Source: Methanomethylovorans hollandica DSM 15978 | GTDB taxonomy: Archaea; Halobacteriota; Methanosarcinia; Methanosarcinales; Methanosarcinaceae | Direction of reading: 5' to 3' | Length of the DNA stretch: 64,000 bases | Assembly (NCBI RefSeq): GCF_000328665.1 | Contig: NC_019977.1 | Location: 248,001 to 312,000, forward strand | Shown: positions 57,572-64,000 of the stretch, piece after piece | How the letters are laid out: every line of letters begins with the position of its first letter | Position numbering within the stretch: the first letter of the stretch is position 1 | Translations under genes and position numbers: made by a program | Notes under the pieces: generated by a model | What the model was told of the DNA's origin: nothing | Seen by the model: only the letters and a program-made list of their open reading frames with translations | Database searches by the model: none

Positions 57572-59062
57572 TCATTTTCTATTCCCGTTGAGGGTTTCCA
57601 CTATCTCCTTAAAGCTTTCCAGCCCTGCTTCGATATTCTCTATGATCTCGTTGGCGAGTATGTCAGGGTCTGGCAGGTTGTCCAGGTCTGCCAGGCTTTT
57701 GTCCTTGAGCCAGAAGATGTCCAGATTGGTTTTATCCCTTGATGCTATTTCCTCGTAGGTGAATCTGCGAAACCTGCCTTCGGGATCTTCCCGGCTCCAT
57801 GTTTCCTTGCGCTGGAAACGGTTCTCGGGGTTATAGCAACGGATGAAGTCTTCAAGGTCCGTGAACCTGAGAGGGTTCTTTTTCAGGGTGTGGTGTACGT
57901 TGGTGCGGTAATCGTAGATCCATATTTCCCTGGTCCAGGGTTCTTTGGATGCGGGTTTTGCCTCGAAGAACAGTACATTGGCCTTTACCCCGTGGGCGTA
58001 GAATATGCCGGTGGGCAGGCGCAGGATGGTGTGCAGGTCGGTGGTCTCCAGGAGCTTTTTGCGGACAGTTTCGCCTGCTCCGCCTTCAAAGAGCACGTTG
58101 TCGGGCAGGACTACTGCTGCCTGCCCCCCGGTTTTGAGGATGGTATGAATGTGCTGCACGAAATTAAGCTGCTTATTGCTGGTAGTGACCCAGAAGTCCT
58201 GGCGGTTATAGGTGAGGTCTTCTTTCTCCTGCTCGCCTTCGTCGTTGGTGAAGGTCATGCTGCTCTTCTTTCCGAAGGGCGGGTTGGTGAGCACGTAGTC
58301 GTATCTGATGTTAGGATCGGCTATGAGGGCATCGGAATTGGAGATCATGGGCTCTCCGTCTATTTCTCCGATGTTGTGCAAAAAGAGGTTCATGAGTGCC
58401 AGCCTGCGGGTCCCGGCCACTATTTCATTGCCGCCGAAGGTCTTTGCTTTCAGGAAGCGGCTGTGGTCGCGGTCAGGCTCGTAATTGTTTGTGAGGAAGT
58501 CATAGGCCGCCAGGAAGAAACCGCCTGTACCGCAGCAGGGATCGCCAATGGTCTTCATAGGTTCCGGGCGCAGGCACTGCACCATGGCTTTGATGAGCGG
58601 GCGGGGTGTAAAATACTGGCCGGCTCCGCTTTTAGTGTCTTCTGCGTTCTTCTGCAGGAGACCTTCGTAGATCTCGCCCTTTGTATCCACTCCCATCATG
58701 ACCCAGCTTTCCTTGTCGATCATATCAATGACCTTGTACAGCATGGCAGGGTCGCTGATCTTGTTCTGCGCCTTGAGGAAGATCTGCCCGAGCATGCCGG
58801 GCTTTTTGCCCAGCTCCTCCAGCAGCTCCTTGTAATGGGTATCAAGCTCTGCACCGCGCTTTTGTTTTAACACATCCCATGTGTACTTCTCCGGGATGCC
58901 TATATCCCGGCTGTATGGCGGTTTTCTGTATTCCTCTGCCATCTTGAGGAATATGAGAAAGGTCAGCTGTTCCAGATAATCGCCATAGCTCACGCCTCCG
59001 TCTCGCAGGACATTGCAGAAGCTCCAGACTTTGGAAACGATGGATGATGTGTTCTCAGACAT
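57572..59062 (-). CDS. hsdM: Type I restriction-modification methyltransferase HsdM
   Basis: N6-adenine DNA methyltransferase subunit, 496 residues. The N-terminal helical domain (SYGDYLEQLTFLIFLKMAEEY), SAM-binding DPCCGTGGF (174-182) and catalytic NPPF (260-263) are all present. It needs HsdS (61642-63147) for specificity. In most systems hsdM comes directly before hsdS; here a flavoprotein and a regulator lie between, and no HsdR is in view. Confidence 0.95.
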   Translation of the reverse strand: MSENTSSIVSKVWSFCNVLRDGGVSYGDYLEQLTFLIFLKMAEEYRKPPYSRDIGIPEKYTWDVLKQKRGAELDTHYKELLEELGKKPGMLGQIFLKAQNKISDPAMLYKVIDMIDKESWVMMGVDTKGEIYEGLLQKNAEDTKSGAGQYFTPRPLIKAMVQCLRPEPMKTIGDPCCGTGGFFLAAYDFLTNNYEPDRDHSRFLKAKTFGGNEIVAGTRRLALMNLFLHNIGEIDGEPMISNSDALIADPNIRYDYVLTNPPFGKKSSMTFTNDEGEQEKEDLTYNRQDFWVTTSNKQLNFVQHIHTILKTGGQAAVVLPDNVLFEGGAGETVRKKLLETTDLHTILRLPTGIFYAHGVKANVLFFEAKPASKEPWTREIWIYDYRTNVHHTLKKNPLRFTDLEDFIRCYNPENRFQRKETWSREDPEGRFRRFTYEEIASRDKTNLDIFWLKDKSLADLDNLPDPDILANEIIENIEAGLESFKEIVETLNGNRK

Positions 59063-59277: not shown

Positions 59278-60069
59278 TTATTTTTGTGCTTCTCTCATCT
59301 CTTTTTTCATTTTTCTTTTCTGGATATGTTCAAATGTCCACCCGATGGCATTGTAGAGCGGATTGACCGGTACGTTCACATAGTATTTCGTTTTCGGGTC
59401 AAGCCAGCCTTTTTCTTTCCAGTAGGTATGATCGGCTGGCGAGATATGTGCCAGCTCTCCAAAGGTTGCTTTCTGCCCGCGGAAAATGAATACATCCCTA
59501 AGCCCCGGAGATCTACGTGCTTTCTTCATAAGGGCATCGTGAAATATAACTGCTGCTTGCTTAAGCTTCCGTTCATTTTCAAGTTCTGTTTTCATAGGTA
59601 ATGGCACGCGGGTTATAATGCCTACCTTGTGAGATATCTCGAAGCCCCATATACCTGCAACCAGCTCAAGATAATCAAGGACATCCCTGTGACCCATCAG
59701 CCCGGTACTACAGAGGAGCAGCGCCTTCTTATCAAAAAAGCGAGGTCTATGGAATATATATGAAAAGCGATCAATAAAAGTCTTCATCTGTGCAGAAACG
59801 TTCATGCCATAAACAGGTGTTGCAAATATAACTCCGTCAGCATCATGCATTTTCTGCTCGATGAGAGGTGCATCGTCCTTGAAAGGACAATGATCCTCTC
59901 CTTCCCCAAAACAGACAAGACATCCACGGCACTGTGACAGGTTTGCATCTTTGAGCATCAGGTACTCAAATTCAACATCACCCATTGAATGCATGACCTC
60001 TTCTATCTTTTTGGCAGCCCGATAGGTATTGCCCTTGCGCGGACTTCCCATGATCACCAGGATTTTCAT
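59278..60069 (-). CDS. Iron-sulfur flavoprotein (NADPH-dependent FMN reductase fold)
   Basis: A 263-residue flavodoxin-like protein with the FMN phosphate loop GSPRKGNTYRAAKKIEE and a compact cysteine motif CRGCLVCFGEGEDHC (CX2CX2C...C), as in the Isf group. GVIFATPVYGMNVSAQMKTFIDR is the usual flavin site. C-terminal 60 residues are an added helical domain. Electron acceptor unknown. It sits inside the restriction-modification cluster, so it may be cargo rather than part of the system. Confidence 0.85.
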   Translation of the reverse strand: MKILVIMGSPRKGNTYRAAKKIEEVMHSMGDVEFEYLMLKDANLSQCRGCLVCFGEGEDHCPFKDDAPLIEQKMHDADGVIFATPVYGMNVSAQMKTFIDRFSYIFHRPRFFDKKALLLCSTGLMGHRDVLDYLELVAGIWGFEISHKVGIITRVPLPMKTELENERKLKQAAVIFHDALMKKARRSPGLRDVFIFRGQKATFGELAHISPADHTYWKEKGWLDPKTKYYVNVPVNPLYNAIGWTFEHIQKRKMKKEMREAQK

Positions 60070-60124: not shown

Positions 60125-61342
60125 TTACGATTTCTGCTCCATTTTTTGTTTCATTTCCTGTCTCAGGAAATAACCACCCGTTTTTGGCGGACCTTCAAAT
60201 GTGACCAATTTAGCTATTTTTTGTAAATCTCTGCGTATGGTAGCTATTGATACATTCAACTCATTTGATAATTCATTTGAATTTCTGCCTGGATTTTGAT
60301 AAAGTAACAATATGATTTTTGAGAGTCTCAGTTTTACTGTATCACTTACTGTATCACTTACTGTATCACTTACTGTATCACTTACTGTATCACTTACTGT
60401 ATCACTTAAAGAACCACCAATTCTTTTTAGTTTTGTATTTTGTGTCATTCCTTCTTTAATAAGTCCTTCAGGTATCGGAATAATTGTCTTAAATGTACTA
60501 CCTTCAATAAACTGAGGAGTGCCACTACCTGCGTATTCCTTAATAAAGCGATTTACGTTTAAAACACCAGAACCCAGTTCATCTACTCTTCCAAGTTGCA
60601 TGAAGAATTTTACTATCGCGGGGTTTTTTGGGAACGGAGCAAACCTTTCCGGATCGATCTGTCCTTCTCCATGTGGATTGTTGGCGTTTTCAGCTTCGAT
60701 CCGGTCTGCATAGATTATAAATGTGCAGGGGTAGGCGTTCATGTATTCCCTGTGGACTATCAAATTTGCAACTACTTCTCTGAATATTTTATTTCTAAGA
60801 CTTACCCGCTGATCGCCTTCTATATAAAATTTGTCAGGCAAATGCTTGCCTACAAATGTCATTAGCTGTTCGTAGGCTTCTATCAGGTTCGTCTGGATGT
60901 ATTCGCGGTCATCGTAGCGGTAAATGTCTTCAATACGGACAAGAGCATCGATTTTAAAGTAAGGAAGAATTTGCTGGATTACTTCGTCTTTTCCAAGCAG
61001 CAAAGCTGCTGCAAGTGTATAGCCTTCTTGTGCACTTTTGAGGTCTCGCTTCCACAGACCTGCTTTTTCCAGCATCTGCTGGTCGTTCAGTGCCAGCCAG
61101 GGATGGTTGTAATTGTAGCTTCTGATAAGATTCTTTATTTTTGGGAACAGGTCGGCTTTGAAGTCTTCAAAGCGCAGTGCGGGATAAATTATGCCTTCTG
61201 TATAATGCGCTGTTTTGTGATTATAAATTTCCGCTATCTGCTGTGGCTGTATGACTTTGAAATCCCCGTCATTACTGCGGTTGAACACTGTATTGGCGGT
61301 CTTATGTATCTGTGAGCTGGCAGGAACCTGGATGTGGATCAC
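60125..61342 (-). CDS. AlbA_2/HATPase-type regulator, C-terminal part after UAG
   Basis: The frame after the in-frame UAG at 61343-61345, 405 codons counted from the GTG that directly follows. It continues the AlbA_2 domain (VIHIQVPASSQIHKTANTVF), then a middle domain with an ATPase-like HATPase_c_4 segment (NKIFREVVANLIVHREYMNAYP, ELGSGVLNVNRFIKEYAG), six SDTV units, and a C-terminal winged helix (NSNELSNELNVSIATIRRDLQ). Families like this are predicted transcription regulators with nucleotide-binding domain. The frame is fully open, and either UAG read-through gives a 506-residue protein or GTG re-initiation makes this part alone. Confidence 0.75.
   Translation of the reverse strand: MIHIQVPASSQIHKTANTVFNRSNDGDFKVIQPQQIAEIYNHKTAHYTEGIIYPALRFEDFKADLFPKIKNLIRSYNYNHPWLALNDQQMLEKAGLWKRDLKSAQEGYTLAAALLLGKDEVIQQILPYFKIDALVRIEDIYRYDDREYIQTNLIEAYEQLMTFVGKHLPDKFYIEGDQRVSLRNKIFREVVANLIVHREYMNAYPCTFIIYADRIEAENANNPHGEGQIDPERFAPFPKNPAIVKFFMQLGRVDELGSGVLNVNRFIKEYAGSGTPQFIEGSTFKTIIPIPEGLIKEGMTQNTKLKRIGGSLSDTVSDTVSDTVSDTVSDTVSDTVKLRLSKIILLLYQNPGRNSNELSNELNVSIATIRRDLQKIAKLVTFEGPPKTGGYFLRQEMKQKMEQKS
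60336..60407 (-). repeat. Six perfect 12-bp tandem units encoding SDTV
   Basis: ACTGTATCACTT is repeated six times without a mismatch on the plus strand, encoding (SDTV)6 in the minus-strand regulator. It connects the ATPase-like and winged-helix domains. The unit being a multiple of three keeps the frame when copy number changes. Perfect identity implies recent expansion or active slippage. Confidence 0.9.
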
Positions 61343-61645
61343 CTATTTTCCTTTGATTTCATAGGTTTGCGGAAACAGTATGAACGGTGGGTCAAGCTTT
61401 TGCGGGTTGTTTGAAAGATTGACCAGATTGGCAACCATGTTTTCGATCTCTGACTGCTCAACTCCTATTATATTGCCATTATCATCGGCTCCGAGAATGA
61501 TGTCCCCTCCATCCCGGTTGAGCATGGCGCAGATGGTTTCAAACAAGTTCCTTGGCAAAGCTGTACGCGCTTCCTTAAACTCCAGACGTATGCCTTCCTG
61601 TTCTTTGAGTAATCTCTTAAGCCGTTCCAGTCCCAATCTGCTCAC
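61343..61645 (-). CDS. AlbA_2-domain regulator, N-terminal part ending at UAG
   Basis: The first 100 codons of the same regulator: MSRLGLERLKRLLKEQEG, then RLEFKEARTALPRNLFETIC and GGDIILGADDNGNIIGVEQSE, the AlbA_2 (Schlafen-like) core. It ends YEIKGK followed by TAG, and the frame then continues without interruption at 61342 with VIHIQVPASS. The stop therefore falls inside a domain; a lysine codon AAG or similar changed to TAG would explain it. Its start overlaps the hsdS stop by four bases. Separate product or pyrrolysine read-through is undecided. Confidence 0.72.
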   Translation of the reverse strand: MSRLGLERLKRLLKEQEGIRLEFKEARTALPRNLFETICAMLNRDGGDIILGADDNGNIIGVEQSEIENMVANLVNLSNNPQKLDPPFILFPQTYEIKGK

Positions 61646-63147
61646 CTCTTTTCCTTTCCTTCTTTTTTCACTTTAATTCTTTCCAGCAACACATCCGCAG
61701 GCTCCCAGTCCTCCGCCATCCGCACCTCAGCAAGCTCCCTTTCGCTCAGCAGCTTCCCCTCAAACGCCTTTTTCAAAATACTCTGCCGAAGCGCCTCTGC
61801 CTTCTCCAGAGCCTCATCAATATCCTGCGCAATCTTATCACACACCGAAAGCCGCGTTTCAATTTCCTGAACGATGGCTTGTTGTTCGGGGAGAGGTGCA
61901 ACTGGGATGCATAAAGATGCTATTTTTGAAAGGTTCAATGTGTATAGACCTGATGTAGAACTAGCAACTTTAGTAATCTGATTTCTGCCGTCAAATGAAA
62001 GCAACCAATAAAGTATAAACTTCCTAATTTTTACAATTTCAAATCTTACCTTAATTATATGATTTTGATGTATGCATGGAGATATTTTTCCATTCCATAT
62101 GGCAACTCTACCAATTTGATTAACGCTTCCGTTGCCTTCTACAATTAAAAGGTCTCCTTCTTTCAGTAAAACTCGTGAAACCTCCTGTTCTTCAATGCCT
62201 ATATATTTTAAATCATCTAATCTAAGTTCATTAGAATAAACATTAGCAACTCTGAGGTAAGGCAAAGTTGTAGATATTGCATTTCTTTTGGAGTTCTTTG
62301 TAAGGCCGCCTGTTACTTCCCCGAGTTCCTCTATCTTCACCCATCCCCACCCCTCTGGCAGCCCTGGAAATTCCACAATTTCATCTTCTGTGAGGGGTTT
62401 TACAGGCTTCATTTTCTTGCCGGAATATTTTGCAGCTTCTTCTCTTTCCTTTCGGATATGTTCCAGCAAATCCCGCGCATCCGGCAGATCGGTCTGCTGC
62501 TCCCGCCATTTTCTGGTAAGTTCACCCTCAAACGCTTTCTTCAGCACCGCCTGCCTGTAAACTTTAAGTTGTTCCTGTGCCAGCCTTAGGTTGGCGATAC
62601 CGTTGTCAAGCTCGCTGAAAAGCTGCTCGATCTTGGAGACAATGGCGCGCTGTTCGGGGAGGGGTGGGAGAGGGAATGGATATTCTTGCAGATATTTTGT
62701 TGAAACTCTTGGCAAATTTACGCCACTTGAGTTATGTGTCATATCACTTACAAACTTACGTGACAAAAAGAAATATTTAGAATAGTTAAGATTGGAAATA
62801 CTAGCAGATTTAAAAACAAGAATGTCTGTAGAACAAACTCCATCTTCATTAGCTAAATACACTTTATTCAAATAAGGTCTAAGTTTTCCGTAGAGCAGAT
62901 CACCTTTTTTAAAACTATTTTTTATAGTAGTGATTGTATCGATTTTAACATCTTGTGTTAATGTTCCTCTATCTTTCTCAATATGTTCTAAACCAATGTA
63001 AAATAAGGATTCTCCTGAGCCATTGTGTTTATCGGACTTTAAAATGTGAGCTTCCCCAAGCCGCACCCATTGCCATCCTTCTGATAATCTTGGTAAATTC
63101 TCTATTCCAGCATTATTGAAAGATATCGAGTTATTCATTTTAAGCAT
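61642..63147 (-). CDS. hsdS: Type I restriction-modification specificity subunit HsdS
   Basis: DNA target recognition subunit, 501 residues, with two target recognition domains (about 20-180 and 260-435). Each is followed by a conserved helix: PLPPLPEQRAIVSKIEQLFSEL and PVAPLPEQQAIVQEIETRLS. The repeated LSEGWQWVRLGE / LPEGWGWVKIEELGE at the domain starts is typical. GAGGC is upstream of the ATG. The two half-sites it reads are not predictable. The repeat copy 2 ends 26 bases before its start. Confidence 0.95.
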   Translation of the reverse strand: MLKMNNSISFNNAGIENLPRLSEGWQWVRLGEAHILKSDKHNGSGESLFYIGLEHIEKDRGTLTQDVKIDTITTIKNSFKKGDLLYGKLRPYLNKVYLANEDGVCSTDILVFKSASISNLNYSKYFFLSRKFVSDMTHNSSGVNLPRVSTKYLQEYPFPLPPLPEQRAIVSKIEQLFSELDNGIANLRLAQEQLKVYRQAVLKKAFEGELTRKWREQQTDLPDARDLLEHIRKEREEAAKYSGKKMKPVKPLTEDEIVEFPGLPEGWGWVKIEELGEVTGGLTKNSKRNAISTTLPYLRVANVYSNELRLDDLKYIGIEEQEVSRVLLKEGDLLIVEGNGSVNQIGRVAIWNGKISPCIHQNHIIKVRFEIVKIRKFILYWLLSFDGRNQITKVASSTSGLYTLNLSKIASLCIPVAPLPEQQAIVQEIETRLSVCDKIAQDIDEALEKAEALRQSILKKAFEGKLLSERELAEVRMAEDWEPADVLLERIKVKKEGKEKR

Positions 63148-63173: not shown

Positions 63174-63278
63174 TTATAGTTAAACACTCATGGTTTGTAA
63201 CTTATGAACGGTAAAATCAAATTCAATAGGTAGTTATGTCAATACTATAAGTTTCAAACAAAAGGTTAACAACTATAA
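63174..63278. repeat. 105-bp palindromic repeat, copy 2
   Basis: Same 105 bases as copy 1 (54317-54421), about 84 percent identical by eye, with the same TTATAGTT/AACTATAA ends. Its right end supplies the last codons and stop (TAA, 63266-63268) of the gene at 63266-64000, which shows that it inserted at or recombined into the end of that gene. Its left end is 26 bases from the hsdS start. Confidence 0.8.
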
Positions 63279-64000
63279 TCTATTACTTCCCAATGTCCAC
63301 CTTTTGCAGGACCGATGCGTTTTATCTTTCCTTCAGCTTTCAATTTCCGAAGATTCCATTCAACACCTTGTATGGACAAGCCTGTGATCTGACACAGTTC
63401 TTCACGGGTAACAGTGGGATTATCCCTGATTGCCTCAAGTATTATTTCTGCATTTTTCCCCTTAGTTTTCTCCGAACTTTCACCCAAATCTGCCTCAGAA
63501 GTTCTGTCAAGTTTTCGGAAAATAACAGAAAAACCGCTATTGTATTCAAATTCCACAGACGATTTTTTGTTCTCGTCCACTGCCTGTATAATTCGGCTTA
63601 TGCCCGTACCCACTTTTTCAATGTAGTTTATACGATGCAGCAAAGAAGCGATCAGAGGGTTACGTGTGACACTCTTACGTCCGAACTCGGAAGGTCTAAG
63701 ACCGCTTGGCAGCCCTCCGGGATTGGATATCTGCACCCTGTCATCAAAGACCTCGATAAGCACATTGGAGCTTCTGTCAAAATAATCACGGTGGCAGACA
63801 GCGTTTATTATGGCTTCTCTCAGTGCCACATCAGGAATATCCGGAATCTCTTCCCGCTGCACACCCTCGATCTTATACTGCACGTTGGTGTGCCTTTTCA
63901 CGAAAAGGATGGCATTATCGATGTTTTCGACAATGTTCTCCTTGAAATCCTTCTTGTCAAGGATATGCACCTTCTCCGTACCCTTGTATAGCACGCATAC
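63266..64000 (-). CDS. AlbA_2/HATPase-type ATP-binding regulator (5' end outside window)
   Basis: C-terminal 244 codons or so of an ATP-binding protein related to the one at 60125. It has IPDVALREAIINAVCHRDYFD, VQISNPGGLPSGL (HATPase_c_4 region), EKVGTGISRIIQAVDE, and a C-terminal winged helix (TVTREELCQITGLSIQGVEWNLRKL). The frame stays open to the window edge, so it is partial; a GTG at 63994 is not likely to be the true start. The last four residues and stop come from the 105-bp repeat. Confidence 0.82.
   Translation of the reverse strand, partial: VCVLYKGTEKVHILDKKDFKENIVENIDNAILFVKRHTNVQYKIEGVQREEIPDIPDVALREAIINAVCHRDYFDRSSNVLIEVFDDRVQISNPGGLPSGLRPSEFGRKSVTRNPLIASLLHRINYIEKVGTGISRIIQAVDENKKSSVEFEYNSGFSVIFRKLDRTSEADLGESSEKTKGKNAEIILEAIRDNPTVTREELCQITGLSIQGVEWNLRKLKAEGKIKRIGPAKGGHWEVIDYSC

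What the first reader, a model, noticed from the sequence alone, without database searches (positions are those of the whole stretch)
60125..61645. Regulator gene read through a single in-frame UAG in a pyrrolysine-capable lineage
The AlbA_2 frame 61645-61343 ends in TAG and the very next codon (GTG, 61342) continues the same frame for 405 codons with the rest of the same domain (YEIKGK-UAG-VIHIQVPASSQ). The downstream frame is undamaged, and a single base change (for example AAG to TAG) explains the stop. Methanosarcinaceae that grow on methylamines translate UAG as pyrrolysine. A regulator in a mobile island with a UAG codon could be made full length only when pyrrolysine is available, linking it to methylamine metabolism, or it is a nonsense mutant or uses re-initiation.
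Basis: partly seen in the sequence, partly recalled or inferred. Interest (0 to 1): 0.75.

Follow-up and report, generated by a model that had tools for sequence, protein, structure and literature searches.

The report
UAG within an AlbA_2 regulator gene
A regulator gene inside a DNA restriction-modification operon of a methane-producing archaeon carries a single tryptophan-to-UAG change in a cell that can read UAG as the amino acid pyrrolysine, so the 'stop' is probably a mostly harmless substitution of a kind already described, not a new switch.

Summary
At 60125-61645 (-) one reading frame is broken only by TAG at codon 101 (61345-61343). The AlbA_2 domain spans it: Pfam score 45.9 bits for the front piece, 59.5 bits read through. 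Two near homologues, a second Methanomethylovorans species and Methanolobus psychrotolerans, have TGG (Trp) there, so one G-to-A change made it (not AAG-to-TAG). The genome has a pylTSBCD set, and its MtmB, MtbB and MttB genes carry in-frame TAG. The frame after the UAG is intact and still constrained on this species' own branch (14 silent: 4 replacement changes; sister 26: 8). The residue varies freely across 24 family members. No hairpin follows the UAG, and UAG is not conserved in relatives. Best reading: a near-neutral Trp-to-UAG change, decoded at least partly as pyrrolysine by background suppression, as shown for Thg1 of Methanosarcina acetivorans. A methylamine-controlled switch is not excluded but nothing specific supports it. 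The gene belongs to a type I restriction-modification operon (hsdR / AlbA_2 / hsdS / this gene / flavin reductase / hsdM). Expression, readthrough and the base call could not be tested. New member of a known kind.

The parts
60125..61645 (-). AlbA_2 / HATPase_c_4-like / winged-HTH protein gene, 506 codons plus TAA, interrupted only by TAG at codon 101
61343..61345 (-). In-frame TAG (codon 101); TGG (Trp) in the sister species and in Methanolobus psychrotolerans
61346..61645 (-). Front piece, 100 codons: N-terminal part of the AlbA_2 domain; would be the terminated product
60125..61342 (-). 405-codon continuation with a GTG directly after TAG; GGA lies 7 nt before the GTG, so re-initiation is conceivable, but codon 102 is CTG and GTA in homologues
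60334..60408 (-). 12-bp tandem repeat coding for SDTV, 6.2 copies: linker before the C-terminal winged HTH
   Evidence: translation
61642..63147 (-). hsdS, type I specificity subunit; its stop overlaps the GTG start of the UAG gene
59278..60069 (-). FMN reductase / flavodoxin-like protein between the UAG gene and hsdM
57572..59062 (-). hsdM, type I methyltransferase subunit
63266..63994 (-). Second, intact AlbA_2/HATPase_c_4/HTH gene (448 codons, continues past the window), followed upstream by hsdR at contig C2:312615-315431

Best explanation
The gene encodes a 506-residue AlbA_2 (Schlafen-like) / HATPase-like / winged-helix protein of a type I restriction-modification operon. A single G-to-A change turned Trp codon 101 (TGG) into UAG in the lineage of this genome. 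Because the cell makes pyrrolysine and a UAG-reading tRNA, ribosomes reaching UAG either stop, giving a 100-residue fragment, or insert pyrrolysine by ordinary competition with the release factor, giving the full-length protein. The position tolerates many residues including lysine, so the Pyl form should work, and the change persisted as a near-neutral substitution. Shown here: the single change, the pyl gene set, the intact and constrained downstream frame, the tolerant position. Inferred: that the gene is expressed, that readthrough occurs (20-30% background in a reporter in a related archaeon, PMC2933860), and that the Pyl form is active.
For: pylS, tRNA-Pyl CUA and pylB, pylC, pylD in the same genome. 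MtmB twice, MtbB and MttB with one in-frame TAG each. TGG at the position in two relatives and one single change. AlbA_2 domain continuous across the UAG. Post-UAG dN/dS to the sister 0.063 against 0.075 before it and 0.071 for hsdM. On this branch 14 silent: 4 replacement changes against 26: 8 on the sister; a period without constraint longer than about 15% of the branch is disfavoured at the 5% level. Position 101 is highly variable in the family and lies at the start of a strand just after a turn. In a 504-kb sample only TAG, never TAA or TGA, interrupts a recognised domain. Published precedent: Thg1 of M. [quoted passage not shown] neutral-drift UAG genes (PMC3639795).
Against: No expression or protein data. 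If the TAG is very young, constraint before it arose would give the same substitution counts. TAG also ends about 10% of coding-like frames in the sample, with in-frame extensions as short as those after TAA and TGA, so UAG is not wholly reassigned, and at 20-30% readthrough most product would be the short fragment. Only one genome of this species was available, so a base-calling error cannot be excluded.
Confidence: 0.7

Rival explanations
1. Recent nonsense mutation: the UAG mostly terminates, the gene is inactive or makes two pieces (100 residues, and 405 residues by re-initiation at the adjacent GTG), and decay has not begun.
For: GTG follows the TAG directly, with GGA 7 nt before it. AlbA_2 genes with internal stops exist in the order: 3 of the roughly 150 best matches listed. 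An intact AlbA_2 paralogue stands two genes upstream in the same operon.
Against: Exactly one lesion, and it is TAG, in a genome that decodes TAG; two of the other three interrupted AlbA_2 genes carry two stops. Downstream constraint is unrelaxed. The GTG is not conserved (CTG, GTA in homologues), and GGA is the ordinary Gly99 codon.
Confidence: 0.2
2. Regulated switch: the UAG makes the full-length regulator only when pyrrolysine is plentiful, tying this restriction-modification operon to methylamine growth.
For: The decoding system is present. A carbon-source-dependent UAG meaning is reported for the bacterium Acetohalobium arabaticum (PMC8211752).
Against: UAG absent from every near homologue. 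Position not conserved. No structure after the UAG (z = 0.95). No link of the neighbouring genes to methylamines.
Confidence: 0.05
3. Sequencing or assembly error: the true codon is TGG.
For: Only one base differs, relatives have TGG, and the rest of the gene looks functional.
Against: The genome is a near-complete two-contig assembly; TAG in place of TGG is a substitution, not the indel type typical of assembly errors.
Confidence: 0.05

Closest known systems
Thg1 (tRNA-His guanylyltransferase) of Methanosarcina acetivorans
   Same: Non-methyltransferase gene with a species-private in-frame UAG in a pyl-bearing methanogen; pyrrolysine is not essential there (PMC2933860).
   Different: Thg1's pyrrolysine has been physically observed; here nothing has been measured. 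Different gene family.
Neutral-drift UAG gene clusters predicted by Have et al. 2013 (PMC3639795)
   Same: Ordinary gene interrupted by one UAG where pyrrolysine would not obstruct the protein.
   Different: Those were found as groups of UAG-bearing homologues; this one has only homologues without UAG, a case their method says it cannot detect.
MtmB / MtbB / MttB methylamine methyltransferases
   Same: In-frame UAG read as pyrrolysine; copies with TAG are in the same genome.
   Different: There UAG is conserved and Pyl sits in the active site (PMC8211752); here UAG is private and the position is free to vary.
AlbA_2 / RecG-C-like / HTH proteins next to type I restriction-modification genes
   Same: Same kind of protein and the same place between hsdS and hsdM as in Methanolobus psychrotolerans and G035.
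   Different: This copy alone carries UAG; a flavin reductase gene separates it from hsdM.

Membership tests
Pyrrolysine-containing proteins | Organism encodes pylT, pylS, pylB, pylC and pylD | tested here: met
   (pylS by curated profile, pylT by ARAGORN, pylB/C/D by order, length and sequence in the cluster, not by profile search)
Pyrrolysine-containing proteins | In-frame UAG inside an otherwise intact, conserved domain | tested here: met
Pyrrolysine-containing proteins | Pyrrolysine present in the protein (mass spectrometry or structure) | not testable with these tools
   no proteome data held
Functional (conserved) Pyl site as in MtmB, MtbB, MttB | UAG conserved among homologues | tested here: not met
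   TGG in both near homologues, varied residues elsewhere
Functional (conserved) Pyl site as in MtmB, MtbB, MttB | Stimulatory structure after UAG (PYLIS, seen in mtmB and mttB; not essential) | tested here: not met
   RNA fold z = 0.95, weaker than most shuffles
Pseudogene | Relaxed constraint or further lesions after the stop | tested here: not met
   a very young lesion is not excluded
SLFN_AlbA_2 (PF04326) proteins | Match above the curated cut-off (25.3 bits) | tested here: met
   59.5 bits read through
Type I restriction-modification operon | hsdR, hsdM and hsdS together | tested here: met

The most novel reading that the evidence does not exclude
Pyrrolysine supply gates the full-length AlbA_2 regulator, so that the activity or specificity of a type I restriction-modification operon follows methylamine availability.
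Probability: 0.04. Interest if true: 0.7.

Novelty: new member of a known kind. Interest (0 to 1): 0.3.

Why it matters
It adds one clean example (Trp to UAG, one change, placed on one branch) to the few genes outside methylamine metabolism in which UAG has drifted in under pyrrolysine decoding. Such genes are likely to be called two ORFs or a pseudogene by standard annotation. Because codon 101 differs from relatives by one base and the flanks are constrained, the site is a convenient natural reporter of how often ordinary UAGs are read through in this genus.

Tried and rejected
AAG-to-TAG origin: rejected, relatives have TGG. Two adjacent genes rather than one interrupted one: rejected, the AlbA_2 profile spans the stop and homologues are single ORFs. 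Downstream recoding hairpin: none. Genome-wide reassignment of UAG: not supported; TAG ends about 10% of coding-like frames and the in-frame extensions after it are as short as after TAA and TGA, though TAG is below the roughly 30% expected from base composition. The structure model was poor overall (mean pLDDT 46.6; only the AlbA_2 part near 80), so no fold search was run. No PDB relative by sequence. PADLOC gave only weak hits for the protein itself. The PNAS paper on Thg1 is not held, so it is cited through PMC2933860. A literature search for AlbA_2 proteins in type I restriction-modification loci gave nothing useful.

Full report
What is there. The window is contig C2:248001-312000 of a 2,714,013-base genome in two contigs. 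On the minus strand a 100-codon frame (61645-61346) ends in TAG (61345-61343) and the next codon, GTG, opens 405 codons in the same frame. Read through, it is a 506-residue protein with an AlbA_2 domain at 17-128, a HATPase_c_4-like stretch just under its cut-off, and a C-terminal winged HTH. The AlbA_2 profile match lengthens from 1-70 to 1-114 of 118 positions and from 45.9 to 59.5 bits when the UAG is read. It is one gene.

How the UAG arose. The sister species (L003, same locus as L030) and Methanolobus psychrotolerans (L031) have single uninterrupted ORFs with TGG at this codon. Between this gene and the sister, dS is 0.30 before and 0.31 after the UAG, dN/dS 0.075 and 0.063; hsdM gives 0.071. 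With Methanolobus as outgroup, changes on this species' branch after the UAG are 14 silent and 4 replacement, against 26 and 8 on the sister branch (Fisher p = 1). If the gene had been free of constraint for 15% of the branch, so few replacements would have a probability of 0.04. This bounds the time of decay, not the age of the TAG.

Is the position important? Among 24 family members alignable there it is W, T, E, K, N, I, D, H, P, L or M. In the model, poor overall but near pLDDT 80 in the AlbA_2 part, it is the second residue of a strand right after a turn. A lysine derivative should be tolerated, though this is inference.

Can the cell read UAG? Yes by gene content: pylS with tRNA-Pyl (anticodon CUA), pylB, pylC and pylD lie together (pylB, pylC and pylD named by position and sequence character in the cluster, not by a profile search), and MtmB (two copies), MtbB and MttB each carry one in-frame TAG. 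In about 504 kb, TAG ends 48 of 468 coding-like frames. The median in-frame extension after TAG (13 codons) is like those after TGA (13) and TAA (11.5), so UAG also serves as a stop, as pylB itself shows by ending in TAG and as published for other Methanosarcinaceae (PMC2933860).

Control for chance. Of 40 coding-like same-frame continuations of at least 40 codons in that sample, 4 follow TAG and 36 follow TAA or TGA. One Pfam domain runs across the stop in 3 of the 4 TAG cases (MttB, MtbB, this gene) and in none of the 36 others at E up to 1e-10. Two of the three TAG cases are known pyrrolysine enzymes, so the independent evidence from this gene is a single case.

Mechanism. No stable structure follows the UAG (z = 0.95) and none is strictly required for Pyl insertion (PMC2933860, PMC8211752). 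In M. acetivorans a UAG placed in a foreign reporter was read through at 20-30% (PMC2933860). I therefore expect a mixture of a 100-residue fragment and full-length protein with pyrrolysine at 101. The same review reports that Thg1 in M. acetivorans alone has acquired a UAG that is translated as Pyl and is not essential; Have et al. describe other such drift cases (PMC3639795). From memory, a 2025 report describes archaea in which all TAG codons are pyrrolysine; it is not held and was not checked.

Context. The gene order on the minus strand is hsdR (C2:312615-315431, outside the window), a second intact AlbA_2 gene, hsdS, this gene, a flavin reductase, hsdM. In Methanolobus psychrotolerans and in G035 the homologue also lies between hsdS and hsdM. 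Nothing in the operon points to methylamines.

Limits. No reads, transcripts, proteome or second isolate were available. The regulated-switch reading is possible but rests only on the presence of the pyl genes.

Noticed in passing
60334-60408: The linker before the C-terminal winged HTH is a perfect 12-bp tandem repeat (SDTV, 6.2 copies). Homologues carry other four-residue repeats at the same place (EGAI in L003, TAQV in L031, TPQA in L004, TAQA in L005), and the sequence after the repeat differs between M. hollandica-like, sister and Methanolobus copies, as if C-terminal domains are swapped there.
   Followed up: partly
L034:6375-7472 (C2:20375-21472): pylB of this genome ends in TAG with 12 more in-frame codons; PMC2933860 reports a TAG end for pylB of M. 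mazei, M. acetivorans and M. burtonii.
   Followed up: partly
L043:14228-14890: Another coding-like TAG continuation (145 codons plus 75) with no convincing Pfam match; possible further UAG-containing gene.
   Followed up: no
L046:12006-14945: A 913-codon Mrr_cat/TPR protein ends in TAG with a 66-codon in-frame extension; whether the extension is coding was not settled.
   Followed up: no
63266-63994 and L035:5266-6612: A second, intact AlbA_2/HATPase_c_4/HTH protein in the same restriction-modification operon, between hsdR and hsdS.
   Followed up: partly
59278-60069: A flavin reductase gene sits between the UAG gene and hsdM here, but upstream of the AlbA_2 gene in the sister species (L003), and is absent between them in Methanolobus (L031).
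   Followed up: no
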